A stretch of 64,000 nucleotides of DNA, from assembly GCF_036346295.1 (NCBI RefSeq), contig NZ_CP107820.1, positions 186,001 through 250,000 of the forward strand, written 5' to 3'. Under the pieces are notes generated by a model. That model ran no database searches and had not been told where the DNA came from. It saw only the letters and a program-made list of their open reading frames with translations. Shown piece after piece: positions 33,724-53,053 of this stretch. The position numbers were made by a program, and so were the translations under genes. This stretch comes from Streptomyces sp. NBC_00536 (lineage in GTDB: Bacteria; Actinomycetota; Actinomycetes; Streptomycetales; Streptomycetaceae). Within the stretch, counting starts at the first letter, position 1. The number at the start of each line of letters is the position of its first letter.

Positions 33724-33763
33724 CGTCGTCTCTTCTTCCGGTCCTTTCGATCCTCGCGGTCCG

Positions 33764-34531: not shown

Positions 34532-34652
34532 CTGTCTCTTCCCGTTTCTGCTGCGAGGCGGGCGGCCTGGTGTCTGGAGGGGGAGGGAGGCGGGAGGGAG
34601 CGGCAGGGGGCTCCGGGGCACCGTCGGCCCGGAGCCCCCTGCCGGTCCCGCG

Positions 34653-35078: not shown

Positions 35079-35143
35079 CGTGGGCTGCCTTTCGAGAGGG
35101 TTGGCAAGAACGGGGTGGGAAGGCGTGCGGGTCGGGCCGGAGG

Positions 35144-36112: not shown

Positions 36113-36150
36113 CCCCGTTCCTACCTCACTGACTTGTGGCCGATAGGTCA

Positions 36151-36229
36151 TCGAGCCGTCGGCGACCGGTTTTCGACTCTGTGAATCTGGCACCCTGTTC
36201 TGGCGCATTCCTCGAATTGACCTCGACTG
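36151..36229. promoter_or_regulatory. Candidate SARP-binding repeats in the divergent PKS/TetR promoter
   Basis: Heptamers TCGAGCC (36151), GCGACCG (36162) and TCGACTC (36173) are spaced exactly 11 bp apart. TCGAATT (36212) and TCGACTG (36223) repeat the 11-bp spacing. SARP activators bind TCGA-type direct heptamers one helical turn apart. The gap drives the PKS operon leftward (from 36112) and the TetR gene rightward (36319). Not experimentally supported. Confidence 0.45.
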
Positions 36230-36318
36230 CCGCCGAAGGACCCGCCGAAGGGACCGCCCAAGGGGCCGCCATTGACGGGGAAAGCACACCGCCACAAACT
36301 GGCCGACATGGCGGCGAC

Positions 36319-36891
36319 ATGGCGAGGATGAGCGCGCAGGAACGGCGTACGAGCGTTATCCGGGCGGCGATGCTCGAATTCGCCCGGGGCGGCTACGACG
36401 GCACCTCGACCGCGGACATCGCCCGGCGCGCGGGGGTGTCCCAGCCGTACCTGTTCCGGCTCTTCCCCGGCAAGCGGGCGATCTTCCTGGCGGCGGCGAC
36501 CCGCTGCGTCGCCGACACGGCGGCCCTGTTCGCCGGGGCCGCGCGGGGGCTGACGGGCCGCGAGGCGCTGCGCGCGATGTCGAACGCCTACACCCGGGTC
36601 CTCGTCAAGGAGCCGGACCGGCTCCGGCTCCAGATGCAGGTGTACGTGGCGGTGGCGGCCGCGGAAGCCGCGGGCGACGCCGCCTTCGGCGAGGCGGTGC
36701 GGGCGGAGTGGCTGAAGGTGTGGGAGGCGGTCGAGGCCCCGCTCGGCGGGGCCGACCCGGCCGGGACGACCACGTTCATGGCGTACGGAATGCTGGTCAA
36801 CGTGCTGGTCTGCATGGGCTTCCCGGCGGGCCACCCGCTGTGGTCCCGGCTGCCGGTGGACGCGGCCGCCGGACGCGCGCTGCCCGGGTGA
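36319..36891 (+). CDS. TetR-family regulator
   Basis: 190 aa. HTH at residues ~7-52: AAMLEFARGGYDGTSTADIA, then RRAGVSQPYLFRLFPGKRA. The C-terminal domain has MQVYVAVAAAEAAGDAAFGE. Divergent from the PKS operon, so likely its repressor or modulator, with an acyl or aromatic intermediate as inducer (inference). Start at ATG 36319 (or 36328). Confidence 0.88.
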   Translation: MARMSAQERRTSVIRAAMLEFARGGYDGTSTADIARRAGVSQPYLFRLFPGKRAIFLAAATRCVADTAALFAGAARGLTGREALRAMSNAYTRVLVKEPDRLRLQMQVYVAVAAAEAAGDAAFGEAVRAEWLKVWEAVEAPLGGADPAGTTTFMAYGMLVNVLVCMGFPAGHPLWSRLPVDAAAGRALPG

Positions 36892-36952
36892 CGCGGCCAT
36901 GGGCCGCCCACCCGGGCTCGGCGGTACACGGGGATCTTCCGGGCGTACGGTC

Positions 36953-38200: not shown

Positions 38201-38349
38201 CTTGTGTGCTCTCCTCGTGGCTGCCCGGGCCGGTCCGGGACCGGTCATGAACTCCCTGGCGGACTAGTGGAGTTGTCAACGCTAGCATTCCAAGCATCGA
38301 ACTTGATAGTCTCAGCAGAACATCTAGCGTCGCTACAAAGGTGGTTGTG
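38201..38349. promoter_or_regulatory. Divergent promoter, FAD monooxygenase / DUF1772 gene
   Basis: The 149-bp gap is AT-richer than its neighbours (TTGTCAACGCTAGCATTCC...). An inverted pair CGCTAG (38280-38285) / CTAGCG (38324-38329) spans it. Promoters for both genes must lie here; the repeat may be an operator. Confidence 0.45.
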
Positions 38350-38823
38350 ATGGAAGTCCTCCTGCAAACGCTGGCCGTGATCGCCACCATGGCCAACGCG
38401 GTGGTCTACGGCACCGACGTCTTCGGCGCACTCGTCCAGCGCCCGGCCCTCGCCCACGTCGACGACGCGACCCTCACCAGCGTCATGGGCCAGACCCACC
38501 GCTTCGGGGACGCCCGGATGGTCGTCCCCGGCGTCTCGGGCCTGGTCTCCACGGTGGCCACCGCCGGGCTGGCGGGCTTCGAGGGCAAGCCCGTGCCCTC
38601 CATCGCCGCGGGCGTCTCGGCCCTGGCCCTGGTCATCTGGCTGGCGATCTACAACAAGGTGAGCGTGCCGGTGAACAAGGCGCTCACCAGCGCGGCCCTG
38701 GAGTGCAAGGTCGCCCCCGACGCCCGCGGCCTGCAGCGCACCTGGGACAGCGTCATCAACGTCCGGGTGCTGCTCCAGGCGGTGGCCCTCGGCGCGATGT
38801 GCGTGGTCCTCTCCACCACCTGA
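38350..38823 (+). CDS. DUF1772 / anthrone-oxygenase-like membrane protein
   Basis: 157 aa. Four hydrophobic segments: TLAVIATMANAVVYGTDV, VVPGVSGLVSTVATAGLA, AGVSALALVIWLAIYN and VLLQAVALGAMCVVLS. The polar loops contain a Gly-Gln-Thr-His pair and WDSVINVR near the end. The family is annotated as anthrone oxygenase-like and appears in aromatic polyketide clusters, where members oxidise an anthrone to an anthraquinone. SD AAAGGTGG at 38337-38344; start ATG 38350. Confidence 0.75.
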   Translation: MEVLLQTLAVIATMANAVVYGTDVFGALVQRPALAHVDDATLTSVMGQTHRFGDARMVVPGVSGLVSTVATAGLAGFEGKPVPSIAAGVSALALVIWLAIYNKVSVPVNKALTSAALECKVAPDARGLQRTWDSVINVRVLLQAVALGAMCVVLSTT

Positions 38824-39197: not shown

Positions 39198-39923
39198 ATG
39201 ACCACCGCCCCGCACACTCCCGCCGCCGATGTGCTCGCCGAACTCACCGCGGTACTGGCGGGGATGACCGGCGCCGAGGTGCACTCCGTCGACGCCGAGC
39301 GGCCCTTCGCCTTCCTGGGGATCGACTCCCTGCTCAGTGCGCAGTTCGTCGCCGCGCTCGGCGCCCGCTACGGCATCCGGCTGCCCAGCGACGCGCTGTA
39401 CGAGCACCGGACCCCGGCGGCGCTGGCCCGGCACATCGCCGGGCGCCTGCACGCGCCCTCCGCCCCGGCGCCGTCCGCCGCCACGACCTCCTGGTCCCCG
39501 CTGCGGCCCGTACGGGACCCGGCCGCGGTCGCCGTGGCCGCCGACCCCGCCGGCCTGACCCTGGTGCTGCGCGACCAGCTCGCGCGGATCCTGCGCTGCG
39601 CCCCCGAGGCCATCGACCCCGGGACCCCCTTCACGATGCTGGGCCTGGATTCCATCCTGGCGGCGGAGTTCGTCGCGGGCATCAACCAGACCTGGGACCT
39701 CACCGAACAGACCGCCCTGCTCTACGAACACCCCGACCTCGCCGCGATGGCCGCGTACGTCACCTCCCGCGTCACCGGCACCCCCGCGGTCCCCCCGGCG
39801 CCCGCCGCGCCGACGCCACCCGCCGCGCAGGGCCCGGGCCTCGACCTCGAAGCCCTGCTGGACGCGGTACGGGACGACGTACTCAGCATCGACGAAGCCG
39901 CCGCCCTGCTCGCCGCCCGCTGA
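39198..39923 (+). CDS. Tandem (double) acyl carrier protein
   Basis: 241 aa. Two ACP domains with intact phosphopantetheine serines: Ser44 in FLGIDSLLSAQF and Ser152 in LGLDSILAAEF. Each is followed by the usual helix with DALYEHRTPAALARHI or ALLYEHPDLAAMAAYV. The C-terminus (DLEALLDAVRDDVLSIDEAA) looks like a short docking helix pair, similar in style to the N-terminus of the next protein (REILRRFKSGTLERRRAVALL). Two ACPs in tandem are typical of PUFA or enediyne PKS and some trans-AT modules. Closely followed by the degenerate KS gene. Confidence 0.85.
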   Translation: MTTAPHTPAADVLAELTAVLAGMTGAEVHSVDAERPFAFLGIDSLLSAQFVAALGARYGIRLPSDALYEHRTPAALARHIAGRLHAPSAPAPSAATTSWSPLRPVRDPAAVAVAADPAGLTLVLRDQLARILRCAPEAIDPGTPFTMLGLDSILAAEFVAGINQTWDLTEQTALLYEHPDLAAMAAYVTSRVTGTPAVPPAPAAPTPPAAQGPGLDLEALLDAVRDDVLSIDEAAALLAAR

Positions 39924-40105
39924 CCCCGCGACGGGGGCGCTGCCGGGTCCACCGCCCCGGGGCACCTCCCGCGGAGCCATCGCGCCCCGCACCCAGGGCC
40001 GGTCGGGCCCGCCCCTCCCCCTCCCGGGCGACGGATTCCACTTCCGCACGGCCCGGAACGACCGCCCGGACACCACCAGGCCGGAGACGAAAGGCACGCC
40101 AGGAG

Positions 40106-43100
40106 ATGGAAGACCGGGAGATCCTGAGGCGGTTCAAGAGCGGCACCCTGGAGCGCCGACGCGCGGTGGCCCTGCTGACGGCCGACCCGACCGCCACCGC
40201 TCCCCCGGAGCCCCTCCCCGCCACCCCACCCACGGCCCCGCGGCCCCCCGCCCCCTGCGCGGTCATCGCCCTCCAGGGCCACTTCCCCCAAGCCGTGGAC
40301 CTCACCGCGTTCTGGCACCTGTCCCTGTCCCCCACCACGCCCCCGGCCCAGCCCATGTCCGACCCCGTCCCGGCGGCCACCACACCCCCGGCCCAGCCCG
40401 GCCCCGGCACCGGCCCGGCGTACGCCAGGCCCACGGACCAGCCCGGCCCTGGCCCTGCCGTCGTCACGACCACGGACCAGCGCGGCCCCGGCCTTGCGTA
40501 CGCCAGACCCGCGGACCAGCCCGGCCCTGGCACCCTCCCCGGCCCCACGTCCCCCACGCCCCCGGCCCGATACTGGCCCGATCCCCCGGCCCAGACCGCG
40601 GCCCGAGCGGAACCGACCGCAAACCACCCCGGCACCGACCCGGCGTACCCCACGCCCACGGACCAGCCCGCCCCCGGCCCCGACCCGGCGGCCGCCCCGG
40701 CCGCGGCCGAGCCCGGCCCCGGCACCGCCCCGGTGTACGCCAGGCCCGCGGACCCGCCCGGCCCCGGCACCGTGCCCGCCAGGGCCGCTGACGGAACCCC
40801 GGCCGAGGCCCCGAGCCCGGCGGTAGCGGCCGCAGGCCAAGCCACGGCCACAGGCCGCCCCGCGCCCCGCCCGGGCCCGCCCGCAACGGGCCCAAGCCTG
40901 GCCGCCGCAGGCCGCGTTACGGCCACAGGCACCCCCCGCCTCACCCCGGTCCGTACCCCGGGCGCAGGCCCGAGCACGGGCATCGGCCCCACCGAAGCCC
41001 CGGGCCCAAGCCTGGCCGCAGGCCCAGGCACGGCCCCGGGCACGGCCCCGGGCGTGAGCCCGGGTGCGGCTCCGGGCGTGGCCCCGGGCGTGAGCCCAGG
41101 CGCGGCCCCGGGCGCGGCCCCGGGCGTGAGCCCGGGTGCGGCCCCGGGTGCGGCCCCGGGCGTGGGCCCGGGTGCAGGCCCGAACGCAGGCCCCGGCACG
41201 GGCATTGGCCCCGCCACAGCCCCAGGCGCAAGCCTGACCGCAGGCCCAGGCGCGGCTCCGGGCGCAAGCCCGGGTGCAGGCCCCGACACGGGCACGGGCC
41301 CCACCGCAGCCCCGGGCGCAAGCCCGGCCGCAGGCCCAGGCGCAACCCCGGGCACGGCCCCGGGCGCGAGCCCGAACTCGCCCGCCGCACCCGCCGCACC
41401 CGCCGCAGCCACCGGCACGGGCACGGCCCCGGACGTCCACCCGGGCGCGCCCGGCGCCGACACCGCCCCCACGGGAACCCCCGGACCGGGAACGGCCGAA
41501 ACCCCGGCCTCGGTACGGGCCATGGCCGCCTGGGCCACGCCCCCGGACCGGAATACGCCCCCGGCCGCAGGCCCGGCCCCGGGCCACGAACCCGCCACCG
41601 TCCCCGGCCAGGGGAACACACCGGGTACCGCTCCGATCCCGGACCAGAACCCCCGCCTCCTCAACGGAGTAGCCGCCTTCGACCCCGACCTCTTCGGCCT
41701 GGACCCCGCCACCGCCGCCGCGCTCGATCCGCAGGAGCGGCTGCTGTTGGAGAGCGCCCGGCAGGTGCTGGAGGGCGCCGGTTACGCCGGGGCCCGCCTC
41801 GACGCCCTCGGCTCCCCCGACGGCGCCACCGCGTCCCGCAGCGTCGGCGTCTTCACCGCCGTCACCTCCCACGACTACTCCCTGCTGGCCCCCGCGGGGA
41901 CCCCGTACGGCGACCCCGCCGGGCGGCTCTCCCGGCTGCTGGACCTGCGCGGCCCCAGCCAGAGCGTGGACACCGGCGCCTCCTCCTTCCTGACCGCCGT
42001 GCACCACGCGCTGGCCGCCCTGCGCGCGGGCGAGTGCGCGGCCGCCCTCGTCGGCGCCGCCGAACTGCGCCTGCACCCCGGCCGCCTGCGCCCCGGTGAC
42101 GGCGAGGGGGTCGCCGCCGTCCTGCTGCGCCCGCTGTCCGCCGCCCGCGCGGACGGAGACCGGGTTCAGGCCGTGGTCCTGTCCAGCGCGGTCGGCCACC
42201 CGGGTCGCGGTCCGCACGCCCCGCTGCGGGAGCGCCTCGCCCAACGGGCCCTGGCCACCGCCCGGATCCCCGCCGCCGCCGTCGCCCTGACCGAGGACTC
42301 CCGCAGCGCGGCGCGCTCCGTGGGCCGGGCCGGGGCCGCGACCGGCGCGGCCGCGCTCGCCCGGGCCGTCTTGCAGCTGCGCCACGCCACCCTGCTCCCG
42401 GACCCGGCGCGCTCCGGCGGCCGGGCCCAGCCCGCCCCCTGGCCGGCCGGTGCGCCCCGCCGCGCCCTGGTCGGCGTACACGAGGACGGCGAGCCGCAGG
42501 CCGTCCTCGTCCTGGCGGAGGCCCCGGCCCCGGCACCCGCCCCGGAACAACCCGCCCCGGAGCCCGGCGGCGGCCCCCGCCTGGTGCTGCTGTCGGCGCC
42601 CACCCCCGCGCACCTCACCGCCACCGCCGGGCGGCTCGCCCGCTGGCTGACCTCCCCCGCCGGGGCCGCCCGCGGCGCGGTCTGCGATCTGGACGCGGTG
42701 GCGGGCGAACTGCGCTCCGGCCGGGCCCCGATGGACTGCCGCCTCGCCGTCGTCGCCACCGACGTGCCGGAGCTGGCGAGCGCCCTGGCCGCCTTCGCCG
42801 CGCCCGGCGGGCTCCCGGAGGCGGACGGCCTCCCGTACGCGCCCCCCGTCCGCAGCGCGGACCTCCGCACCGCGCACGCCCGTGACCCGCTGCTGCTGGG
42901 CGATCTCGGCGAGACCCGCGCGTACGTCGACGCCCTCTGGCGGGGCGACCGGCTGGAGCAGCTGACCCGGCTGTGGCTGGCCGGGGTCGACGTCCTGGTC
43001 ACCGACACGGCACCCGGCGCCGGCCCGCGGCCCGTCCTCGACCTGCCGACGACCGCGTCCCGCCCCCGCCCCTTCTGGCTGCCCGCCCCGCCGGATACGG

Positions 43101-43129
43101 CCCGCGCCGAGCGGGGAGACCTCGCATGA
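40106..43129 (+). CDS. Inactive type I PKS ketosynthase with a giant Pro/Ala/Gly insertion
   Basis: 1007 aa. Residues 1-28 resemble a docking/start segment of modular PKS (REILRRFKSGTL). KS sequence starts at ~51 (CAVIALQGHFPQAVDLTAFW), stops at ~77, and resumes only at ~517 (AAFDPDLFGLDPATAAALDP). The ~440 residues between are low-complexity P/A/G/T repeats. The catalytic Cys is Ala (VDTGASSFLTAVHHA), the HGTGT motif is absent, and GH is GR (SVGRAGAATGAAAL). The last part resembles a post-KS/linker (LPTTASRPRPFWLP). No AT, KR or ACP domain. Overlaps the PPTase gene by ATGA. A dead KS, possibly structural. Confidence 0.8.
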   Translation: MEDREILRRFKSGTLERRRAVALLTADPTATAPPEPLPATPPTAPRPPAPCAVIALQGHFPQAVDLTAFWHLSLSPTTPPAQPMSDPVPAATTPPAQPGPGTGPAYARPTDQPGPGPAVVTTTDQRGPGLAYARPADQPGPGTLPGPTSPTPPARYWPDPPAQTAARAEPTANHPGTDPAYPTPTDQPAPGPDPAAAPAAAEPGPGTAPVYARPADPPGPGTVPARAADGTPAEAPSPAVAAAGQATATGRPAPRPGPPATGPSLAAAGRVTATGTPRLTPVRTPGAGPSTGIGPTEAPGPSLAAGPGTAPGTAPGVSPGAAPGVAPGVSPGAAPGAAPGVSPGAAPGAAPGVGPGAGPNAGPGTGIGPATAPGASLTAGPGAAPGASPGAGPDTGTGPTAAPGASPAAGPGATPGTAPGASPNSPAAPAAPAAATGTGTAPDVHPGAPGADTAPTGTPGPGTAETPASVRAMAAWATPPDRNTPPAAGPAPGHEPATVPGQGNTPGTAPIPDQNPRLLNGVAAFDPDLFGLDPATAAALDPQERLLLESARQVLEGAGYAGARLDALGSPDGATASRSVGVFTAVTSHDYSLLAPAGTPYGDPAGRLSRLLDLRGPSQSVDTGASSFLTAVHHALAALRAGECAAALVGAAELRLHPGRLRPGDGEGVAAVLLRPLSAARADGDRVQAVVLSSAVGHPGRGPHAPLRERLAQRALATARIPAAAVALTEDSRSAARSVGRAGAATGAAALARAVLQLRHATLLPDPARSGGRAQPAPWPAGAPRRALVGVHEDGEPQAVLVLAEAPAPAPAPEQPAPEPGGGPRLVLLSAPTPAHLTATAGRLARWLTSPAGAARGAVCDLDAVAGELRSGRAPMDCRLAVVATDVPELASALAAFAAPGGLPEADGLPYAPPVRSADLRTAHARDPLLLGDLGETRAYVDALWRGDRLEQLTRLWLAGVDVLVTDTAPGAGPRPVLDLPTTASRPRPFWLPAPPDTARAERGDLA
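40336..41655. repeat. Low-complexity insertion inside the KS gene
   Basis: About 1.3 kb with short imperfect repeats, densest at 41026-41370 where 15-18-bp units coding for PGAAPGVSPGA-like strings recur (GCGGCCCCGGGCGTGAGCCC-type). The reverse strand also reads open here because of codon composition, which explains the large antisense reading frames. Reading frame is kept throughout. Confidence 0.75.
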
Positions 43130-44055
43130 ACGCCGCCACGACGGTGAACGCCGCGACGGTGACCAGCGCCACGACGGCAACCAGCGCCCCGCGAGCGCCC
43201 GGCGGCACCAACCGGCAGCAACTGGTCGAGGCGGCCGCCGCCCAGGGCCCCACCGCCGAGGCGGTCACCCTGTGGCTGTGCCCCAACGACGAGGTCAGTC
43301 CGGCCCTGGCCAGTCTGCTGGCCGGGCACTGGCTGGACGCCCACGAGCACAAGACCGCGGGCAAGTTCCTCTTCGAGCGGGACCGCAGCCAGTACCTGAT
43401 CGCCCACACGCTGGTGCGCCGCGCCCTGTCCCTGGAGGCGGGCCTGTCCGAGGCCGAGCTGGTCATCTGGCGCTCCGCCCGCGGGCGGCCGTTCCTGCGG
43501 CCCTCCCCCGACGCCCTGCCGCGCGGCGGCGCCCAGCTGGACTTCAACCTCTCGCACGCGGGCGGCTACAACCTGCTCGGCATCGTGCGCCACCAGCGCA
43601 TCGGCGTGGACGTGGAGCGGATGGACGACCGCGACGCCCAGGCCATCACCACCATCGTGCGCACCTTCGCGCCCGAGGAGCGCGACTGGGTGGACACCCT
43701 GCCCCCGGGGCGCGAGCGCGACCGGCGCGCGCTGCGCGTGTGGACGCTCAAGGAGGCGTACTCCAAGGCCCGCGGCCTGGGTCTCGGACTGCCCTTCGAC
43801 AGCTTCGTGTTCACGATGGACGACGAGCGCGGTGTGCGCGCCTTCGCCCCGCCGGAGGACGACACGGCCCGCCCCTGGTGGTTCATCGAGCTGGAGCCGG
43901 TCCCCGGCGTCCTGGTCGCCGTCGCGGTCCCCGCCGACCCCGGGCAGGACGCGGTGATCCAGCTGAACCACGGCTTCCCGTGGAGCCGCAGCGCCCCCCA
44001 GAGTTTTCCGCTCCCGGATCCGGTCGGCGGAATCCAGGCATCCGTTCCCGCGTGA
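43126..44055 (+). CDS. 4'-phosphopantetheinyl transferase (Sfp type), first copy
   Basis: 309 aa. Sfp-type marks: FLRPSPDALPRGGAQLDFNL, SHAGGYNLLGIV, the Mg-binding RIGVDVERMDD, and WTLKEAYSKARGLGLG. Activates ACP domains by attaching phosphopantetheine from CoA. Probably serves the tandem ACP at 39198 encoded two genes upstream. ATG 43126 overlaps the previous stop. The Ala/Thr-rich N-terminal ~30 residues are not part of the fold. Confidence 0.9.
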   Translation: MNAATTVNAATVTSATTATSAPRAPGGTNRQQLVEAAAAQGPTAEAVTLWLCPNDEVSPALASLLAGHWLDAHEHKTAGKFLFERDRSQYLIAHTLVRRALSLEAGLSEAELVIWRSARGRPFLRPSPDALPRGGAQLDFNLSHAGGYNLLGIVRHQRIGVDVERMDDRDAQAITTIVRTFAPEERDWVDTLPPGRERDRRALRVWTLKEAYSKARGLGLGLPFDSFVFTMDDERGVRAFAPPEDDTARPWWFIELEPVPGVLVAVAVPADPGQDAVIQLNHGFPWSRSAPQSFPLPDPVGGIQASVPA

Positions 44056-44386
44056 CACCCCGGACAGCCCCCGAACACCCCCGGAACACTCCTCGAATCC
44101 TTTACCGATAATTTGGAAACATTCGCGGATCTTCTCGCGCCCCGGAAAGTTGATCTATATCTCTCCAGCTTTCCCCGGACATCCGCCCGTAACATCATCC
44201 AGCCCGCCCTGACCTGCAAAGAGGCTGAATCCATCCCGTACTGATGGGACGCCATGGAAAGGCGCTCAAGGACCACTACAGGAAATAGAGAAAGACCTGT
44301 GGCCCCCGCTAGCGTGCCTGGAGCGGGGGCGGATTTCTGCCCACCGGATGGAAAAGACAAGGAACTCGACGAGTACGGAGGAGACC
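44056..44386. promoter_or_regulatory. 331-bp leader of the first SARP gene
   Basis: No gene seen. It has AT-rich promoter-like patches (GATAATTTGGAAACATTC, TTGATCTATATCTCTCC) and a hairpin GCCCCCGCT...AGCGGGGGC at 44302-44330 (9-bp stem, 11-nt loop) in the presumed 5' UTR, which could attenuate expression. Confidence 0.45.
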
Positions 44387-45208
44387 GTGAGGATTCAGGT
44401 TCTGGGTCCGTTGAGTGCCGAGGTCAACGGGGGATCCATCGTTCCGACCGCGGGTAAACCACGGCAGGTTCTGTCACTGCTCGCGCTCTATCCGGGGCGC
44501 GTCATGCCGGTCCCCACCCTCATGGAGGAGATCTGGGGGACCCAGCCGCCGCAGAGCGCGCTGACCACCCTCCAGACGTACATCCTCCAGTTACGCAGAC
44601 GCCTGGGCACCGCGATGGGCCCCGACGCGCCCGGTGGCGCCAAAGAGGTACTGGCCACCCGGCACGGCGGCTACCTGCTGCAGATCCCCGAAGAGAGCGT
44701 CGACGTACACGATTACGAGCGCCTGATCCGCGAGGGCCAGACGGCCTTCGAGACGGGCGACAGCCAGGTCTCGGCGGCCCGCTTCAAGGCCGCGCTGGAC
44801 CTGTGGCGCGGACCGGCCCTGGTCGACGTACGCGTGGGACCGATCCTCGACATCGAGGTGATGCGCCTGGAGGAGAGCCGGCTCGTCACCGTGGAACGGC
44901 GGATCGACGCCGACCTGCGCCTCGGCCGGCACGCCGAACTCATCGCCGAACTCACCGAACTGACCGCGCGCCACCCCCAGCACGAGGGACTGCACTCCCA
45001 GGTGATGGTCGCGCTCTACCGCTCGGGCCGACAGGCCTCGGCACTGGAGGTGTACCGCAAGCTGCGCATGCGGCTGATCGAGGACCTGGGCGTGGAGCCC
45101 TCCCCGCAGTTGCAGCGCCTGCACCAGGCGATGCTGTCCGTGGACCCGCAGCTCGACGTCTTCGCGGGCCCCCGGCACACCTCGACCTTCGACCTCTTCG
45201 CCGCCTGA
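44387..45208 (+). CDS. SARP-family activator (first copy)
   Basis: 273 aa. Winged-helix OmpR-like DNA-binding N-terminus (RIQVLGPLSAEVNGGSIVPT, then KPRQVLSLLALYPGRVM) and a bacterial transcriptional activation domain with VDVHDYERLIREGQ and HPQHEGLHSQVMVALYRSGR. No extra ATPase or TPR domain, so a small DnrI/RedD/ActII-ORF4-like SARP. GTG 44387 follows GGAGGAG. Close in sequence to the SARP at 60819, including GPLSAEVNGGSIVPTA. A pathway-specific activator is the likely role. Confidence 0.92.
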   Translation: MRIQVLGPLSAEVNGGSIVPTAGKPRQVLSLLALYPGRVMPVPTLMEEIWGTQPPQSALTTLQTYILQLRRRLGTAMGPDAPGGAKEVLATRHGGYLLQIPEESVDVHDYERLIREGQTAFETGDSQVSAARFKAALDLWRGPALVDVRVGPILDIEVMRLEESRLVTVERRIDADLRLGRHAELIAELTELTARHPQHEGLHSQVMVALYRSGRQASALEVYRKLRMRLIEDLGVEPSPQLQRLHQAMLSVDPQLDVFAGPRHTSTFDLFAA

Positions 45209-45390
45209 GGACCCGCCCCGGGCCGGTACGCGCACCTCCTGGCCGGTACGCGCGTACCCCCGGGGCGGCTCCGCCACCCGTGCCGGGCCTCTCGAAGGCC
45301 TCTCCAGCCCCGGTCCAGCCGGGGCGCGGACAGTGATGGGTCATCACCGGCCCGCCGCTTGGGGTGCCGTTCGGAGCCAGGAGGTCGCAC

Positions 45391-46986
45391 GTGCCCATCC
45401 TGAGGTACCTGGAGAACCCGCTCGACGACCTGCTGCGGCGGGCCGCGGCGCGCGGGGGTGACGCACCGGCCGTCACCACCGCCCGTACCACCCTCACCTT
45501 CGCCGCAATCGACCGGGAAGCAGACCGGATCGCGCACGTCGTACGCCGCCTCGCGTCCCGGCCCGGCGCCGTGGTCGCGGCGGCCGCGAACCTGGACGCG
45601 GTGTTCCCCGCCGTCTACTACGGCACGATCCGCAGCGGCCACCTGCTGGCCCTCGTCGATCCGCTGACCGGTCCGGCCGCCCTGCACGAGATCCTCACCA
45701 CGGCCGGAGCCGAGATCGCCTTCGTGCCCACGGCCCTCGCCGAGCTGCTGGTCAAGATGGAGGACCAGCTGCCGCACCTGCGCACGATCGTGGTGACGGA
45801 CGCGGTCGGCGAAGTGGCCCCCGGCTCGTCCCTGGCACTGTCCACGGTGCTTGCGTCCGCGCCGCACACCCCACTGCGGACCGGCCCCCCGATCGACGTG
45901 GACTCCGTGGCCTGCCTCCACTTCACCCCGCACACGAGCCCGCACACGGGGTCGCCGGGCATGGCATGGCGAGCGATCCGTTTCAGCCACCGCAACCTCA
46001 TCGCGGGCGCCGCCCAAACGGCCATCGCCCAGAACCTGGACTCCGGTTCGGTCATCGTGAACCACTTGCCCCTCTACCATCCCGCCCACCTCAACGCCGC
46101 CGTGCACGCGGGCGCCTGGCAGGTGCTGTGCGCCGATCCGGCGCCCTGGGCCGGGATCGCGCTCGCCGCGCGGGTGGGCGCGGACCACTACCACGGGCTC
46201 GCGAGCCGGCTGACCCGGCTGGCCGCCGACCGCCGCTTCGCACCCGGACACCCGGACCTGCCCGGCCCGCACCTGCGCGCGGTGCTCTCCGGCGGCACCC
46301 CGCTGGAACCGGCGACCGCGCGGCGGCTGCGCGACGTCCTGGGCGCGCCCGTCCTGCAGGGGTACGGCCTGAGCGAGGTGTGCACCCTCTCCCACCACCA
46401 GGTGCCCGGCTCCCGGCCGGACCTCGGCGCGGTCGGCGTCCCGCTGCCGGGCACCGAGTGCCGGGTGGTCGCGCCCGCCGGGCGGGAGCCGGTCGCGGTG
46501 TGGTCGACGGGCGAGGTGGAGATCCGCGGTCCGCAGCTGACCGCGGGCTGCGGGGCGGACGGCTGGCTCTCCACGGGCGACGTGGGCTATCTCGACGAGG
46601 ACGGCGGACTGTACGTCGTCGACCGCCTCGGCTCCGTCTTCACCTGCGACGACGTCCTCATCGCGCCGTCCCTGATCGAACGGGTCATCGCCGAGGACCC
46701 CCGGGTCGCGGAGTGCGTCGTGGCCGACTGGCCCGACCCAGCACGCGGCGCCCTGGTCTGGGCAGGCATCGTCCTACGCCCGGGTGTCCCGACCCACACC
46801 CCCTTGCTCCTCCTCGACACCCTGGACTCGATAGCGGAACAGGCCAACGCCCGCCTCTCCTCAGGAGAACGCATCCGTCGCCTGGAAGCCCTGGACACCA
46901 TCCCCCGCACCCCCACCGGCACCCCCGCCCGCCACCACATCCGCACCCGCCTCCAAGCCCTCTCCACCGCCGAAACCACCACCTGA
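45391..46986 (+). CDS. Degenerate adenylation enzyme (FAAL/acyl-AMP ligase-like)
   Basis: 531 aa. ANL fold is clear: QGYGLSEVCTLSHHQ, STGDVGYLDEDGGLYVVD, DRLGSVFTCDDVLIAPSLIE. But the P-loop motif (normally TSGTTGxPKG) reads HFTPHTSPHTGSPGMAW, and the catalytic C-terminal Lys is Thr (IPRTPTGTPARHHIR). Adenylation should therefore be lost or very weak. GTG 45391 has a good SD (AGGAGG). Encoded alone between the first SARP and a repeat-rich gap. Confidence 0.8.
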   Translation: MPILRYLENPLDDLLRRAAARGGDAPAVTTARTTLTFAAIDREADRIAHVVRRLASRPGAVVAAAANLDAVFPAVYYGTIRSGHLLALVDPLTGPAALHEILTTAGAEIAFVPTALAELLVKMEDQLPHLRTIVVTDAVGEVAPGSSLALSTVLASAPHTPLRTGPPIDVDSVACLHFTPHTSPHTGSPGMAWRAIRFSHRNLIAGAAQTAIAQNLDSGSVIVNHLPLYHPAHLNAAVHAGAWQVLCADPAPWAGIALAARVGADHYHGLASRLTRLAADRRFAPGHPDLPGPHLRAVLSGGTPLEPATARRLRDVLGAPVLQGYGLSEVCTLSHHQVPGSRPDLGAVGVPLPGTECRVVAPAGREPVAVWSTGEVEIRGPQLTAGCGADGWLSTGDVGYLDEDGGLYVVDRLGSVFTCDDVLIAPSLIERVIAEDPRVAECVVADWPDPARGALVWAGIVLRPGVPTHTPLLLLDTLDSIAEQANARLSSGERIRRLEALDTIPRTPTGTPARHHIRTRLQALSTAETTT

Positions 46987-47313
46987 CCCCCCGCCGCGCC
47001 CCCAGAGGGGGACAGCCGACCGACAAGGGCGCGCAACCCCAGCCCCGCCGGCGTTTGAGGCGCCCCCAGAGGGCCAGCCGACCCAACGGGGCGCACCCAC
47101 CCCACCCCCACCGAGGCCATTCCAGCCCCGCCGGCGTTTGAGGCGCCCCCAGAGGGCCAGCCGACCCAACGGGGCGCACCCACCCCACCCTCGCCGAGGC
47201 CATTCCAGCCCCGCCGGCGTTTGAGGCGCCCCCGGAGGGCCAGCCGACCGGCGCCACCGATCCGGCCCCCGCCCCCGCCCCCGAGACCAGGCCCGCCAGG
47301 GCTACCGACTGGG
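46987..47313. repeat. 82-bp tandem repeats with a streptomycete intergenic element
   Basis: Three copies of CAGCCCCGCCGGCGTTTGAGG begin near 47040, 47122 and 47204, each inside a larger unit of about 82 bp (CAACGGGGCGCACCCACCCCACC...CCGAGGCCATTC). The core recurs at 54821, 54977, 62034, 62093 and 62126. This gap between two convergent genes holds no gene; the repeats may act as terminators or protein or recombination sites. Confidence 0.75.
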
Positions 47314-49419
47314 CTACCGACTGGGCGTCGAGGCCGACGCCGAGGCCTCCACCGGGGCCAGCGCCCGCACAAGCGCCTCCGCCGAAGCCTCCGCATCCGC
47401 GACCCCCGTCATCACCACCGTCACCGCCAAGTCCCGCCCCGGCTCCCGGACCAGCGCCTCCCCCAGCCCCTGCGCCGCCCCCGCCCCGGGCCCGCACCCG
47501 CACAGGAACACCCGCCGCCCGGGGACGGGCACAAGCAAGCCATCCAGTTCCGGCGGAACCGAAACCGCCCCCGCCCCCGGAAGCCCCGGCAGCCACAGCA
47601 CGACCACCCTCCCCACCCCCCGATACCGCCGCGCGAACACCTCGTACGCCCCCGCAACCACCCCCGGCACCGCCACCAGGCAGATCACATCCGCCGAAGC
47701 CCCACCCGCCCGCAGGGTCCGCAGCACGACCCGCCGGACCGGCGGCGGGTCCGGAGCCACGGCCGGGACCTCGACATGGGCCAGCAGCGACAGCGCCTGC
47801 CCCACCGTCGTCCCCGGATCCCGCATCTGCGCCAGCGCCCGCAACAGGCTCACGCACTGCCCGAGCGCCGCCGACGCGTCCTCGTCGGCCAGACTCGCCC
47901 GGTCGTACACCGCGCTGAGCGCCAGCGCCCCGCCCCGCTCGTGCCGCGCGTTCAGCGTGATCGGCAGGCTGGTCCCGCCGCCCGCGGGCCGCGGCTCGTC
48001 CACCTCGATCCCCTGTCCCTCCAGTTCGGCCCGTACGCCCGGCGGGAGTTCGGGCCAGTGGTCGAAGGACACGACGGTGTCGGTGAGCGGCGGCTCGCCG
48101 TCACCGCGCCCGATCCACGCCCGGATCCGGTCGCCGGACACCCACGGGTACGCGGCCAGGTCGAGCAGCGCGTCCCGCACCTGCTGGAGCAGCTCGGCCA
48201 GCGGGGCCGCCGGGTCCACGCGCACCGTCATCGGCAGCGGGTGCCCGAGCACGCCGGGTATCCCCGCGGCTCCGGGCAGCGCGATGTCCCGGGGCCCAAG
48301 CTGCACCCCGAAGCTCACCCGCAGCGGGCCGCCGGTCCCCGCCGCCCGGTACAGCAGCAGCGCCCACACCACGTGCAGGGCGCTGCTCTCCCCGGCCCCC
48401 CGGGCCGCGGCCCAGGAGCGCAGCCCGGAGCTGTACGGCTCGACGAGCCGCCTGCGCAGCCGCCCCGCCCCGCTCTGGCGGGTGTCGGCGCCCCGGCGGC
48501 CCACCGCGGTCGCGGCGTGCCGCGGGGGTCCGGTCCGCGTCCACAGTTCGCGCGCGCCCTCGCTGCTCTGCCGGGCCAGCCAGCGGGCGTGGTCGCGCAG
48601 GTCGGGGCGGCGCTCCCCGCCGGGCAGCACCCCGCCGGCCAGGTAGGCCCGGTAGAACTCGCGCAGCAGCAGGTGCACCCCGCGCTCGTCGAGCAGCGCC
48701 CGGTGGTAGGTCAGCAGGACGCGTACGGGCGCCCCCGGCCGCCCGTGCAGCAGGGTGAGCCGCAGCAGCGGCGGCCGGTCCAGCGCGAAGCCGTGCAGCC
48801 GGTCGGCCGCGAGGAGCCCGGGCCAGTCGGCCTCGCCGTGCGCGCGGTGGACGATGTCGACGTCGGCGCGCGGGTGCAGTACGAGCCTGGCCACCGCCGT
48901 CCAGTCGAAGGCGGCCCGCAGCACCGCTTCCCGGTCGGCCACCGACTGCCAGGCCGCGGCGAAGCGCGCCCGTTCCAGCGGGCCGGACCAGGTCCAGTGC
49001 AGTTGCTCGATGTGCCGGTCGGGGCCGCTCTGCCGGGTGACCGCCTCCCAGAGCAGTTCCCGCTGGTGGCCGACCAGTTCGAGCGGCTCCCCGGCCGCCC
49101 GGTGCGGACCGAGCAGGTCGGCGAGCAACTCGGGCCCCGGCCCGCCACCCGCACCAGCACCCGCACCCGCACCCACGCCCGCACCCGCACCCGCACCCGG
49201 AACCAGCCGCAGCGTGTGCCGCCCCGGCCCGTGGCACTCCAGCGTGACCTGGAACTCCCGGTGCCGCCCGGCGATCCGGGCAGCGAACAGTTCGGCGTCC
49301 GCGTCGTCGCGCAGCCCGCGCACGCCGAAGACGAGGGGGGCTCCGGCCACCGGCCGCCCCGCCTCGCGCACCACGACGAGGACCGGCCCCGGGCCCCGGG
49401 GGCCCGACGTGCCGGTCAT
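47314..49419 (-). CDS. Degenerate NRPS condensation domain with TE-like tail
   Basis: 701 aa. Residues ~110-560 resemble an NRPS condensation domain (LLWEAVTRQSGPDRHIEQLH; DTVVSFDHWPELP). The HHxxxDG motif reads TYHRALLDERG: the second, catalytic His is Arg and the Gly is Glu. Residues ~565-700 look like a short type II thioesterase without its serine (LCGCGPGAGAAQGLGEAL where GHSxG is expected). A Gly/Ala string (~75-95) separates an unassigned N-terminal part. Not a free-standing normal C domain. Confidence 0.65.
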   Translation of the reverse strand: MTGTSGPRGPGPVLVVVREAGRPVAGAPLVFGVRGLRDDADAELFAARIAGRHREFQVTLECHGPGRHTLRLVPGAGAGAGVGAGAGAGAGGGPGPELLADLLGPHRAAGEPLELVGHQRELLWEAVTRQSGPDRHIEQLHWTWSGPLERARFAAAWQSVADREAVLRAAFDWTAVARLVLHPRADVDIVHRAHGEADWPGLLAADRLHGFALDRPPLLRLTLLHGRPGAPVRVLLTYHRALLDERGVHLLLREFYRAYLAGGVLPGGERRPDLRDHARWLARQSSEGARELWTRTGPPRHAATAVGRRGADTRQSGAGRLRRRLVEPYSSGLRSWAAARGAGESSALHVVWALLLYRAAGTGGPLRVSFGVQLGPRDIALPGAAGIPGVLGHPLPMTVRVDPAAPLAELLQQVRDALLDLAAYPWVSGDRIRAWIGRGDGEPPLTDTVVSFDHWPELPPGVRAELEGQGIEVDEPRPAGGGTSLPITLNARHERGGALALSAVYDRASLADEDASAALGQCVSLLRALAQMRDPGTTVGQALSLLAHVEVPAVAPDPPPVRRVVLRTLRAGGASADVICLVAVPGVVAGAYEVFARRYRGVGRVVVLWLPGLPGAGAVSVPPELDGLLVPVPGRRVFLCGCGPGAGAAQGLGEALVREPGRDLAVTVVMTGVADAEASAEALVRALAPVEASASASTPSR

Positions 49420-49597
49420 CCCTGGCCCGTACTTCCCCCGGCCGCCACCGGGAGCTGGGGGAAACCCGGGCTATCCGTCCTGACCGGCACGACGGCCCCC
49501 GACCCGGACACGGCGCGGCCCGCGCGCGGCCGCAGGCCGCGCTCCGGCGAGTTCCCTTGCCTTCACGGCGTACGCCTTCCCTTGGCCCGGCCGGAGG

Positions 49598-50497
49598 TTA
49601 CCGGTCCAAAAAGCGTAGTAGGCCCAGCGGTTCGGGGCCCCTTTCCTCAAGCGGACCTGCACCGCTCCGCGAACCGGCGTCGACCGGCGGCGCGGTCTCC
49701 GGCACAGACTTCGGCGCCGAGCCCGCCCGTACCCGCCGGTGCGCCTCGCTGACGAGATAGCGGTCCTGGACGAGATGCGTGGCGAAGCTCCACCGCCCGC
49801 CCGCGTCATCGCCCGGCACGACCTGCGGCGCACCGGCCCCGTCCCCGGAACCCGCCCCGGCCCCGTACGCGAACCCGAACCCGGCGAAGCTCCGCCGCAT
49901 CCCGTGCCCGAGCGCCTTCGTGTACGCCTCCTTCAAGGTCCACATGCGCAACAGCCGCACCCGGCGCTCCTCTTCGGGCAGCGCGGCCAGCTCCGCGTCC
50001 TCCGCCGGGGTGCACACGTGCTCGCGCAGCAGCTCGAAGGAGATCTGCCGCCCCACCGGCTCCGCGTCCACCCCGATCGGCCCGGTCCGGCTCACCCCGA
50101 CCACGATCAGCTCGTCGGTGTGCGCCAGGCTCACCTCCAGCTCGCCGCCGAGCCCGCGCAGGACGGGCCGCCCGCCGGGCCGGTAGCCGAGGTCGAGGGC
50201 GCCCACGGGTACGTTCAGCGCGCTCGCGGCGGTGTACTTCATCACCAGCCGGGACACCGCGAACCGCATCCGCCCGGCCGCCGTCGGCCCCTGCCGGTAG
50301 CGCGGCCAGTCGTGCCCGAGCAGCGGCCGCAGCCCCGGATCCAGCAGCGCGGCCGTCAGCCACTGGCCCCAGGTGGTGCAGACGACCGCCCGGCCGTCGT
50401 CGTCGAGCCGGTCGCCCAGCTCGTCCCACGGCCCGTCGGGCCCGGCGACCGCCAGCGGCGCGGGCCCCGGCCCGTAGCCGGGCGCCGCCGCGCTCAC
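49598..50497 (-). CDS. 4'-phosphopantetheinyl transferase (Sfp type), second copy
   Basis: 299 aa. YRQGPTAAGRMRFAVSRLVM, EVSLAHTDELIVVGVS, Mg-binding GPIGVDAEPVGRQ, and MWTLKEAYTKALGHGMRRSF. GTG 50497 overlaps the stop of the gene upstream (GTGA). Only distantly alike the PPTase at 43126, so they may serve different carriers; two PPTases in one cluster is uncommon. Long Pro/Gly-rich tail (~60 residues). Confidence 0.88.
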   Translation of the reverse strand: MSAAAPGYGPGPAPLAVAGPDGPWDELGDRLDDDGRAVVCTTWGQWLTAALLDPGLRPLLGHDWPRYRQGPTAAGRMRFAVSRLVMKYTAASALNVPVGALDLGYRPGGRPVLRGLGGELEVSLAHTDELIVVGVSRTGPIGVDAEPVGRQISFELLREHVCTPAEDAELAALPEEERRVRLLRMWTLKEAYTKALGHGMRRSFAGFGFAYGAGAGSGDGAGAPQVVPGDDAGGRWSFATHLVQDRYLVSEAHRRVRAGSAPKSVPETAPPVDAGSRSGAGPLEERGPEPLGLLRFLDR

Positions 50498-51963
50498 CAC
50501 AGCACCCGGGTCGCGTAGAGGTCGCAGTCGACCCCGAGCCGGTCGCGGCCGTCCAGCTCCGCCCACACCCGCTGCTGCGCCTCGATCTCCGCGGGCCCGG
50601 CCGGGCCGCCCGGACCGATGCCGAGCCGGGCCGCGATCCGCGAGGCCGCGAGCAGCGACCAGTGTTCGCCGCCCAGGAACGGGACCCGCCCGGCGGCGGC
50701 CCCCTGCACTCCCAGCACGGCGCCCGCCAGCAGCAGCATGGCCTGCCGGTCGGCCAGCGCCCGTACCGCCGGATCGGCGCGGCCCGCGTGCGCGGCGGCC
50801 AGGCACGGTCCGTGCAGCGCGCGCTGCTCGCTCACCAGCCGTCCCGCCACCCGGGCGAGCGCGGCGGTGACCGCCTCGCCGCCCGCGACGGCGGTGGAGA
50901 GCCGGGCCGCGGCGCCGGTGAGCACGCCGACGAGGGTGTCGTCGCCCTCCGGCGCCGGGGGCACGCTCCGGGCGGGCATGGCCTCGCCGAGCCGGAACAG
51001 CACGGCGCCCGTGGTGTCCGCCCGGCGCTCGAAGGCGAGGGCCAGCGAGGGCAGTTCGCGCACCACGTCCGTCTGGTAGGCGGACACGTCCGCCGGACCG
51101 GACCCGGCCCGGGACACGTCCGTGGCCAGCTTGGCCACCATCAGCCGCTCCAGCGAGCCGGCCGGACGCCCGCATTCACCGAGTACGAGGTCCACCTCGT
51201 CCAGCACCCCGCCCACCACCTGCGCCGTCACGTACCCGACGGCCGCGCGCACGGCCCGCCCGCTGCCCTGCGGCAGCGCACTCGCCCGCAGCCCCACCGC
51301 CACCAGGCTCTCGCAGGCCAGCAGCTCGGCGAAGGCGGCGGCCAGCGGTCCGCGCCACTGCCGGATCGCGGGCTCGGTCCGGCCCCGCTCGGCGACCATC
51401 CGCACCGCCGCGCGCAGCACCGTACCCGTGGTGGCGATCAGCGCCGCCGGGCCGAGCAGCGCGGCGAACTCCCCGGCCCGCGCGGGCACCGGCTCCTCCC
51501 GTTCCAGGGCGGCGATCAGCGCCCGCGCGCCGTGCGCGTACCCGAGCGCCAGGTCCCGGCGGAACAGTGGGCGCAGCACGCGCACGAGGTCGTCGGCGGC
51601 GGTGTAGCGGCCGCCGTGCGCCGCCGGTACCAGCTCGGCCCGCACGGCGGCTTCGACGGCGGTGCGCTGCACCCCGCCCCGGCCGCCGGTGCCTTCGCGC
51701 AGGCCGTGGAACCCGTACGGATTGCCCTCGTCGTAGGGATCGGAGAGCAGCGCCTCCAGCCGCACCGCCCGCAGCGCGACGTCCACGGTGGGCGCGAGGG
51801 CCGCGTAGGGGTGGGCGAGCGCGAAGTGCCGCGTCCGCGGCGGCCGTTCGGCGGCCTCCTGGGCGACCGGCTCGGCCTCCGGAAGGACGACCTCGCGCTC
51901 CTGCACGGGACCGGACCGGGTGAGGGCCATCGAACTGCTCCTGTTCATCGGCGAGGTCGTCAT
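50494..51963 (-). CDS. Acyl-CoA dehydrogenase-like protein lacking the middle beta-domain
   Basis: 489 aa. N-terminal helices (LSDPYDEGNPYGFHGL, AELVPAAHGGRYTAADDLV, LFRRDLALGYAHGARALIAA) and the C-terminal helical part (GPLAAAFAELLACESLVAVG; VGYVTAQVVGGVLDEVDLVL) match the acyl-CoA dehydrogenases found in NRPS/PKS clusters. The ~100-120 residue central beta-domain, which contacts FAD and substrate, seems missing (the two helical parts join near residue 150-170). Activity as a dehydrogenase is doubtful. Confidence 0.55.
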   Translation of the reverse strand: MTTSPMNRSSSMALTRSGPVQEREVVLPEAEPVAQEAAERPPRTRHFALAHPYAALAPTVDVALRAVRLEALLSDPYDEGNPYGFHGLREGTGGRGGVQRTAVEAAVRAELVPAAHGGRYTAADDLVRVLRPLFRRDLALGYAHGARALIAALEREEPVPARAGEFAALLGPAALIATTGTVLRAAVRMVAERGRTEPAIRQWRGPLAAAFAELLACESLVAVGLRASALPQGSGRAVRAAVGYVTAQVVGGVLDEVDLVLGECGRPAGSLERLMVAKLATDVSRAGSGPADVSAYQTDVVRELPSLALAFERRADTTGAVLFRLGEAMPARSVPPAPEGDDTLVGVLTGAAARLSTAVAGGEAVTAALARVAGRLVSEQRALHGPCLAAAHAGRADPAVRALADRQAMLLLAGAVLGVQGAAAGRVPFLGGEHWSLLAASRIAARLGIGPGGPAGPAEIEAQQRVWAELDGRDRLGVDCDLYATRVLW

Positions 51964-52008: not shown

Positions 52009-52971
52009 TCATCGCAACCTGCGTACGGCGCTCTGCGCGTGCCACTTGGCCAGCCCCAGCACCTCTTCGGAGGCCCGCCCCAGCCACGCGCGCACGTACC
52101 GGCGGGCCTCCGCGAGGCTCGTCCCCTCTCCCAGCACCCGCTCGACGGCCTCCTCGTTCAGCATCACCTGCTGCGCACAGACCACCCGGACCCCGTCCTC
52201 GTCCGGCACCAGGGACCATTCGCCGCTGTGCGCGGCGATCAGTTCGGGGGTGACCAGCTCCTTGTGGACGATCCGCGCGGCCGAGGGGAAACACAGCCGC
52301 ACCGCCCGCGTGGAGACCGTCCGCCCGCCGGGCGCGGCGCAGGTGTCCAGGACGGCGACCTGCACGCCCGGCACGTCCTCGATGACGCTGGACCACTCCA
52401 CGTGCGGGACGGATTCGCTCCAGTCCCCGATCCGGTAGAGGAAGTCGTAGACCAGCTCGGCCGGGCCCTGGACGTGCACGCTGTCCTCGAAGGAGAGCAG
52501 CAGCCGGTCCATCCGCTCCCAGCGTTCGGCGGCCTCCTTGAGGTGCGCGAGCTGCGCGTCCAGCTCCGCCTGCCACTCCCGCTGGCTGCGTTCGCTCTCG
52601 GCGGCGGGCAACCCCACCAGGGTGCGCCGTTGGACCAGGGTCACCAGTGACTCCGTATCGCCCTTCGGTTCGACCGTCCAGGTCCCGGACACGGGCACGC
52701 CCAGGCGGGCGGTGTCCTCCTGCTCGAAGTCGACCGCGCGGGCGTGGGGGCGCAGCACGCGCCGGAGGTGGAAGGACCGGACCCGGTCCCCGGCCACGTC
52801 CCAGAGCCGCAGGCGTTCGTGCTCGCCGTCGAAGTCCATCCGTTCGACGTGCACGGGGGAGGGCAGCAGGAGGGGCCAGCGCACGGCGTCGGCCAGCAGT
52901 CCGTAGACCACGCCGGCCGGGGCGGCCACCCACGCCGTCTGCTCGCTCGCGTGCACACGCTGCGACGACAT
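52009..52971 (-). CDS. Two-domain polyketide aromatase/cyclase
   Basis: 320 aa. Two SRPBCC (START-like) halves: AWVAAPAGVVYGLLADAVRW (~10-145) and FEDSVHVQGPAELVYDFLYR with DWSESVPHVEW (~160-320). Tandem ARO/CYC proteins of aromatic type II PKS pathways fold, cyclise and aromatise the first ring. Its presence argues for an aromatic part in the product. Start ATG 52971 with SD AAAGGGG; GTG 52986 lies upstream. Confidence 0.9.
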   Translation of the reverse strand: MSSQRVHASEQTAWVAAPAGVVYGLLADAVRWPLLLPSPVHVERMDFDGEHERLRLWDVAGDRVRSFHLRRVLRPHARAVDFEQEDTARLGVPVSGTWTVEPKGDTESLVTLVQRRTLVGLPAAESERSQREWQAELDAQLAHLKEAAERWERMDRLLLSFEDSVHVQGPAELVYDFLYRIGDWSESVPHVEWSSVIEDVPGVQVAVLDTCAAPGGRTVSTRAVRLCFPSAARIVHKELVTPELIAAHSGEWSLVPDEDGVRVVCAQQVMLNEEAVERVLGEGTSLAEARRYVRAWLGRASEEVLGLAKWHAQSAVRRLR

Positions 52972-53053
52972 GAATGCCCCTTTCACCTCTGCGGGTGCCC
53001 TCCAGAGTGCACGGCCCCGCTCGAACCTCCCTCAAGCCCGGCGGCACGACCCC

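What the first reader, a model, noticed from the sequence alone, without database searches (positions are those of the whole stretch)
39198..51963. A carrier-protein block in which every catalytic partner looks dead
The tandem ACP keeps both serines (GIDSL, GLDSI) and two PPTases are intact. But the KS has Ala for Cys and Arg for His (40106), the adenylation enzyme has lost the P-loop motif and catalytic Lys (45391), the condensation protein has HRALLDE for HHxxxDG and no GHSxG serine (47314), and the dehydrogenase-like protein seems to lack its middle domain (50494). Frames are kept and SD sites are good, so this is not simple decay. Hypothesis: a non-catalytic scaffold or acyl-channelling complex.
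Basis: partly seen in the sequence, partly recalled or inferred. Interest (0 to 1): 0.9.

Follow-up and report, generated by a model that had tools for sequence, protein, structure and literature searches.

The report
Conserved dead-enzyme module around carrier proteins
A group of neighbouring Streptomyces genes encodes intact carrier proteins and their activating enzymes beside four relatives of biosynthetic enzymes that have lost their catalytic parts; the same losses recur in many other streptomycetes, so the proteins seem to be kept for a non-catalytic job rather than decaying.

Summary
Of the 119 listed KS homologues none has Cys at the nucleophile or an HGTGT/S motif; of the 120 listed condensation homologues none has HHxxxDG, 87 have HRxxxDE, and the thioesterase-like nucleophile column is Gly in 119. 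The "dehydrogenase" is an acyl-CoA dehydrogenase fold without its middle domain. The adenylating protein lost P-loop and A10 lysine in 5 of 5 module copies examined.

A sister operon elsewhere keeps intact ANL (11 of 11) and full ACAD. Dead-elbow C/TE goes with truncated ACAD in 22 of 22 loci, sister-clade C/TE with full ACAD in 16 of 16. dN/dS is mostly 0.2-0.6; carriers and PPTases are kept. The module shares plasmids with type I, reducing type II or aromatic type II PKSs. "Every partner dead" overstates: ARO/CYC and the neighbouring PKS look intact.

Best reading: a pseudoenzyme module related to a catalytic operon, probably docking a holo-tandem ACP. Conservation of the losses is shown; the scaffold role is inferred.

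The parts
39198..39923 (+). Tandem acyl carrier protein (two ACPs, both Ser kept) with a C-terminal helical tail LEALLDAVRDDVLSIDEAAALLAAR
40106..43129 (+). KS-like pseudoenzyme (nearest solved relatives: KSs of AT-less PKSs); Cys to Ala, HGTGT segment absent, NIGH His to Arg; N-terminal motif EDREILRRFKSGTLERRRAVALL; RhiE-like linker towards the C-terminus
40332..41400 (+). Pro/Ala/Gly-rich tandem-repeat tract inside the KS-like gene, reading frame kept
43126..44055 (+). Sfp-type PPTase 1, motifs intact, ATGA overlap with the KS-like gene
44348..45208 (+). SARP-family activator, the best conserved gene of the block
45391..46986 (+). ANL-family pseudo-adenylating protein; P-loop and A10 Lys lost (open reading frame from 45364)
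47314..49419 (-). Stand-alone condensation/thioesterase-like pseudoenzyme; HRALLDE and GCGPG
49598..50497 (-). Sfp-type PPTase 2, motifs intact, GTGA overlap with the ACAD-like gene
50494..51963 (-). Acyl-CoA-dehydrogenase-fold pseudoenzyme without the middle beta domain
52009..52986 (-). Di-domain aromatase/cyclase (BexL/StfQ-like), conserved residues kept; upstream gene of the minus-strand operon

Best explanation
A conserved pseudoenzyme module. Shown: a sister operon (ANL, FAD oxidase, KR, ARO/CYC, ACAD, PPTase, C/TE) and this module share homologous genes; in the module ANL, ACAD and C/TE have lost catalytic parts together, while ARO/CYC, PPTases and SARPs stayed intact; and it is combined with a second cassette, tandem ACP - KS-like - PPTase1, whose KS-like protein lacks its catalytic residues in every listed homologue. 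Inferred: PPTase1 and PPTase2 make the tandem ACP holo; the KS-like protein docks on it through paired helical tails (ACP C-terminus, KS-like N-terminus); the C/TE-like protein, with HRxxxDE as in glycopeptide X-domains, and the ACAD- and ANL-like shells hold the acyl-ACP or present it to intact partners (ARO/CYC, flavin monooxygenases, or the PKS of the same plasmid). It would thus work like a chain-length factor or an X-domain, but with several pseudoenzymes together. Which acyl group and which enzyme are served is not known.
For: Family-wide loss: 0 of 119 listed KS homologues with Cys or HGTGT/S; 0 of 120 listed C homologues with HHxxxDG, the D-E pair kept in 119. The dead-elbow C rows (30) are one side of one branch, SH-aLRT 100. 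Linked losses: truncated ACAD with dead-elbow C in 22 of 22, full ACAD with sister-clade C in 16 of 16; ANL dead in 5 of 5 module copies, intact in 11 of 11 sister copies. dN/dS: dead C 0.21-0.44 (11 pairs), dead ANL 0.18-0.28 (3), KS-like 0.29-0.52 (6), truncated ACAD 0.35-0.79 (7); sister-operon C 0.29-0.41 (4), ACAD 0.13-0.51 (4), ANL 0.21-0.45 (4). Second carrier Ser kept in 15 of 15 KS-linked tACPs. Tail/KS co-occurrence 15 of 17 against 0 of 4; head and tail profiles alike, hhalign E 0.0003 but probability only 40%. HRxxxDE is the X-domain motif said to stop catalysis and block the access channel (PMC6565677, passages). Overlapping start/stop codons.
Against: No interaction, complex structure or product was tested; the C/TE model was too poor to use (mean pLDDT 60.6). 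L002, L003 and L004 keep the dead C protein with no tACP, KS-like or PPTase1 hit in the flank held and with a degenerate PPTase2; L018 keeps it without a tACP hit within 10 kb. The X-domain resemblance is one motif, present in 87 of 120; the other 33 differ, and 7 of them (PHxxxDE) keep a His at the catalytic position. The KS nucleophile site is very variable, which looks like a free site, not a designed one. In the sister clade the condensation motif is itself mostly degenerate: HHxxxDG in 5 of 46 rows, elbow Ser in 35 of 46, so 'live' holds firmly for ANL and ACAD only. The tail-less tACPs come from close relatives, perhaps one event. The tree has a midpoint root only, so the direction intact to dead is inferred from motifs. 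Some dN/dS pairs share genomes and are not independent; ACAD-like omega reaches 0.79 and one sister-clade C pair (L033/L043, dS 0.08) 0.64. A tblastn of the KS-like part against plasmids at E 1e-40 found one record only, although KS-like genes are annotated on others.
Confidence: 0.5

Rival explanations
1. The proteins are enzymes with new chemistry: the folds and substrate tunnels are kept and reused with other residues.
For: The dead C rows keep 28 of 37 polar residues fixed in their relatives and have 6 newly fixed ones; ANL has 12 newly fixed polar columns. Seven of 120 C homologues keep a His at the catalytic position, and 9 have a Ser one column before the lost nucleophile.
Against: The KS nucleophile site is filled by ten different residues; three module ANLs (L076, L010, L011), about 403-407 aa, lack the C-terminal domain; the ACAD has no middle domain, recalled as part of the FAD and substrate site.
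Confidence: 0.17
2. A sensor: acyl-loaded tandem ACP with its pseudoenzymes reports precursor or product status to the SARP/ScbR regulators that flank the module.
For: SARP genes lie between the gene blocks in many loci, and the module sits beside ScbA and ScbR genes on plasmids L076, L078, L080, L081; it shares plasmids with type I and two kinds of type II PKS, as expected of a general controller.
Against: No contact with a regulator is known to me or was tested; SARPs are common beside Streptomyces clusters (recalled).
Confidence: 0.15
3. A helper kit (SARPs, two PPTases, carboxyltransferase subunits, ARO/CYC) is under selection; the dead genes are slowly decaying passengers.
For: ACC beta homologues lie in 19 of 30 dead-clade loci; no ANL hit in many module loci and a truncated one in three; dead genes evolve faster than the SARP gene; PPTase2 is degenerate in L002-L004; one possibly broken C copy, H83.
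Against: Long open frames in hundreds of database homologues, dN/dS well below 1 for C and ANL, order largely kept, overlapping start/stop codons. Frameshifts were not searched for as such.
Confidence: 0.13

Closest known systems
X-domain of glycopeptide NRPSs (kistamicin, teicoplanin)
   Same: Condensation fold with the same HHxxxDG to HRxxxDE change, said to abolish catalysis and block the channel (PMC6565677, passages)
   Different: Stand-alone gene with its own degenerate TE-like part; the profile's solved relatives are C domains such as PvdL, McyB, bacitracin, surfactin, so the motif looks convergent
Chain length factor (KS-beta) of type II PKSs
   Same: KS homologue without nucleophile, kept by selection beside an ACP (recalled)
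   Different: The KS-like protein here is nearest to KSs of AT-less PKSs, lacks the HGTGT segment, and no live KS of its own kind is in the module
ACAD9 acting with ECSIT
   Same: An acyl-CoA dehydrogenase turned into an assembly factor, losing FAD on binding (PMC10716376, abstract)
   Different: ACAD9 changes role by releasing FAD; here the middle domain is gone from the gene
Sister ANL-ACAD-PPTase-C/TE operons, e.g. beside the type II minimal PKS of the NBC_00523 plasmid (L078/L082)
   Same: Homologous genes in similar order
   Different: ANL and ACAD motifs or domains kept there; the C/TE beside them is itself HPALLDD with an elbow Cys

Membership tests
Ketosynthase (active KS) | Nucleophile Cys and two His (HGTGT, NIGH) | tested here: not met
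   0 of 119 listed homologues with Cys or HGTGT/S; NIGH-His position never His, 12 of 119 gaps
Ketosynthase fold | Match to PF00109 and KS-linker | tested here: met
   PF00109 1.6e-28, PF22336 3.1e-10; PF02801 not matched
Chain length factor | KS-alpha partner forming a heterodimer | not testable with these tools
   No complex prediction available; nearest solved relatives are AT-less PKS KSs
Condensation domain (active) | HHxxxDG | tested here: not met
   Window HRALLDE; 0 of 120 listed homologues
X-domain | HRxxxDE inactivating motif | tested here: met
   HRALLDE in the window; 87 of 120 listed homologues
X-domain | Part of the last module of an NRPS | tested here: not met
   Stand-alone gene in the window
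X-domain | Closest kin among C-type domains are X-domains | tested here: inconclusive
   None of 19 PDB hits is named X-domain; one is called 'special condensation domain'; whether X-domain entries are in that copy was not checked
X-domain | Recruits an oxygenase | not testable with these tools
   -
Thioesterase (alpha/beta hydrolase) | Ser in the nucleophile elbow | tested here: not met
   GxGP[AG] in 118 of 120; nucleophile column Gly in 119, gap in 1; 9 rows have a Ser one column earlier
Acyl-CoA dehydrogenase | Fold of N- and C-terminal alpha domains | tested here: met
Acyl-CoA dehydrogenase | Middle beta domain | tested here: not met
   Middle columns 0-15% filled in 22 of 22 module copies; no strand of 3 or more residues in the model
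ANL adenylating enzyme | P-loop (A3) and A10 lysine | tested here: not met
   Lost in 5 of 5 module copies aligned, the A10 region being absent in three
Sfp-type PPTase | GVD.E and KEAY.K motifs | tested here: met
   Both window PPTases

The most novel reading that the evidence does not exclude
A mobile, all-pseudoenzyme carrier-protein complex: an operon was copied, its activating, desaturating and condensing/hydrolysing enzymes were switched off together, and the copy, joined to a tandem ACP with a docked dead KS, spread on Streptomyces plasmids as a general non-catalytic accessory (scaffold or sensor) for unrelated PKS types.
Probability: 0.35. Interest if true: 0.92.

Novelty: new variant of a known kind. 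Interest (0 to 1): 0.74.

Why it matters
Single dead partners (chain length factor, X-domain) are known in assembly lines. A set of four different dead enzyme folds kept together, with a sister operon for comparison, gives a direct test of whether carrier-protein pathways use pseudoenzymes as a scaffold or sensor. It also warns that database records name such genes condensation, polyketide synthase or adenylate-forming proteins, which would suggest chemistry that they cannot do by the usual mechanism.

Tried and rejected
Simple decay: rejected as the main account because of open frames and dN/dS, but kept as a partial rival. Mis-alignment of catalytic residues: rejected with PDB, family and sister-operon alignments. 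X-domain membership: not claimed; the gene is stand-alone and the PDB hits are other C domains. A sister set in the same genome: not found for C/TE (other hits at 33% or less in frames of about 3,500-5,600 aa) or for ANL (others at most 40% over part of the length); ACAD and KS-like were not searched there. The C/TE structure model was poor and was not searched. ACC beta was sought in the window and 16 kb on either side without a hit. KS-like against plasmids at E 1e-40 gave one record. Published accounts: ten paper searches were answered, three of them with no paper; none of the listed titles describes such a module. Only open-licence PMC papers were searched.

Caveats: the 119 and 120 homologues are the best-scoring listed of 240 and 483 hits, so near kin are over-represented. 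dN/dS used Nei-Gojobori on stop-to-stop frames without codon-bias correction. The tree is a quick search with a midpoint root. In one search L021 and L077 also hold a second, sister-clade C gene (elbows GYSGS and GYAGA); they are counted by the truncated ACAD found there. The 16 sister-clade loci have elbow Ser in 9, Cys in 4, Thr in 2, unseen in 1, and HHxxxDG in 3. In one search L021, L077 and L078 were left out of the ACAD, ANL, ARO/CYC and PPT2 counts. In one search 15 of 119 KS hits had no recognisable head and were left out. The ANL hit of L008 was not aligned for motifs.
Full report
What is there. The window is high-GC DNA on contig C2 (267,650 bases) of a 4-contig assembly; whether C2 is a plasmid was not tested. 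Plus strand: tandem ACP, KS-like, PPTase1 (ATGA overlap with the KS-like stop), SARP, ANL. Minus strand, in transcription order: ARO/CYC, ACAD-like, PPTase2 (GTGA overlap), condensation/thioesterase-like. To the left lies a reducing type II PKS (KS, CLF, FabA-type DH, KR, ACP, AT), two of whose KS proteins keep the TACA and HGT motifs.

Observation check. The KS-like protein lacks the HGTGT stretch as well, and in this strain carries a long Pro/Ala/Gly-rich tract in frame. Close relatives listed with a start like the window's are 593 and 662 aa long.

The losses are shared. Among the 119 listed KS homologues other than the window's own the nucleophile site holds D 48, E 32, P 22, A 7, G 3, Q 2, S 2, N 1, T 1, R 1 and never Cys; none has HGTGT/S. 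Among the 120 listed C homologues HRxxxDE is found in 87, HPxxxDE in 18, PHxxxDE in 7 (a His stays at the catalytic position), PPxxxDE in 3 and five single others; HHxxxDG in none. The elbow reads GxGP[GA] in 118; its nucleophile column is Gly in 119 and a gap in one, and 9 rows have a Ser one column earlier.

A sister set exists. In 67 GTDB loci and annotated plasmid stretches more distant members of the C/TE family occur. Of 76 C rows aligned, 30 belong to the dead-elbow clade; of the other 46, 5 have HHxxxDG and 35 keep an elbow Ser. The dead clade is set off by one branch with SH-aLRT 100; the HH label needs five changes, at least three of them forced by well-supported branches, so the condensation motif changed repeatedly in this family, even where the elbow Ser stayed. 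ANL keeps TTGTTG and the Lys three residues on, and the A10 Lys, in 11 of 11 sister copies; in the module 0 of 5 do, and three copies lack the C-terminal domain. ACAD keeps the middle domain in 16 of 16 loci with a sister-clade C and in 0 of 22 with a dead-elbow one. L078 carries a dead C and also a full ACAD, which sits beside a second C gene with HPALLDD and an elbow Cys. Polar residues fixed in sister copies are kept in ARO/CYC (14 of 18 kept at 90% or more, none lost), partly in PPTase2 (28 of 47 kept, 5 lost) and ANL (29 of 73 kept, 14 lost), and mostly not in ACAD (13 of 87 kept, 46 lost); C keeps 28 of 37 and lost 2. So the ACAD gene changed most, C kept its fold, and ARO/CYC looks functional.

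Selection. dN/dS over close pairs is 0.21-0.44 for dead C (11 pairs), 0.18-0.28 for dead ANL (3), 0.29-0.52 for KS-like (6) and 0.35-0.79 for truncated ACAD (7). Sister-operon genes give C 0.29-0.41, ACAD 0.13-0.51 and ANL 0.21-0.45 (4 pairs each); two further sister-clade C pairs give 0.26 and 0.64. SARP44 is 0.05-0.35.

Carrier side. The second ACP Ser is kept in 15 of 15 KS-linked tACPs, the first in the 13 that have a first ACP in the frame read; four tail-less tACPs (L014, L016, L020, L078) lost the second Ser. The tail ALLDAVRxDxLSxDEAxxLL, with variations, occurs in 17 of 21 tACPs, of which 15 have the KS-like gene; the four without it have none. The KS-like N-terminus REILTRFKxGxLxRxxAxALL has a similar pattern; hhalign E 0.0003, probability 40%. 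PPTase1 motifs are intact in 16 of 16, PPTase2 in 42 of 45 (L002-L004 degenerate). The own genome holds 13 PPTase domains in all, so these two are not its only ones.

Context. The cluster is accessory: besides the window's own genome, 1 of 60 related genomes has a match at E 1e-60, with two hits at 44-45% identity. In the plasmid collection 103 records carry a relative of the C protein at E 1e-30, 21 of them over 80% of its length. The module shares a plasmid with modular type I KSs lying tens of kb away (records of L077, L080, L081), lies beside a reducing type II PKS (window, L001, L076; parts of it seen in L010, L011), or lies beside an aromatic type II PKS (L078). ACC beta is in 19 of 30 dead-clade loci but not in the window or 16 kb beside it.

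Mechanism. Inferred, not shown: holo-tandem ACP docks the KS-like protein by the helical tails; the other shells hold or present the acyl-ACP. HRxxxDE equals the kistamicin X-domain motif, where it disables condensation and blocks the channel (PMC6565677, passages), but solved relatives by sequence are other C domains. ACAD9 is a precedent for a dehydrogenase turned assembly factor (PMC10716376, abstract). A sensor role and new chemistry remain open. The cases L002-L004 and L018, which keep the dead C protein without a tACP hit nearby, speak against a purely ACP-centred account.

Noticed in passing
40332-41400: Tandem Pro/Ala/Gly-coding repeats (periods such as 12, 36, 39, 45, 90) inside the KS-like gene, in frame; a database version of the protein is only 535 aa (P0247) and starts downstream of most of the tract.
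   Followed up: partly
47039-47249 and 54624-55046: Tandem repeats between genes: an 83-base unit 97% alike, and 34/68/156-base units.
   Followed up: no
27893-38823: Reducing type II PKS (KS/CLF, FabA-like DH, KR, ACP, AT) beside an FAD monooxygenase and a DUF1772/anthrone-oxygenase-like gene; parts of the same set lie beside the module in L001, L010, L011, L076.
   Followed up: partly
10925-12133: OrfB/IS605-type transposase gene with a Cas12f1-like TNB domain match (PF01385, PF07282).
   Followed up: no
L022, L024, L027-L030, L079: Long (about 1100-1400 aa as read) C/TE relatives with an extra N-terminal part and degenerate condensation motifs; elbow Ser in 6 of these 7, Thr in L030.
   Followed up: partly
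L014, L016, L020, L078: Tandem ACPs whose second site reads GVDA, without the phosphopantetheine Ser, in loci lacking the KS-like gene.
   Followed up: partly
L002, L003, L004: PPTase2 with degenerate motifs beside a dead C protein and no tACP hit.
   Followed up: no
CP106748.1 96034-97302 (H83): C-protein match in three pieces under two hypothetical genes; possibly a broken copy.
   Followed up: no
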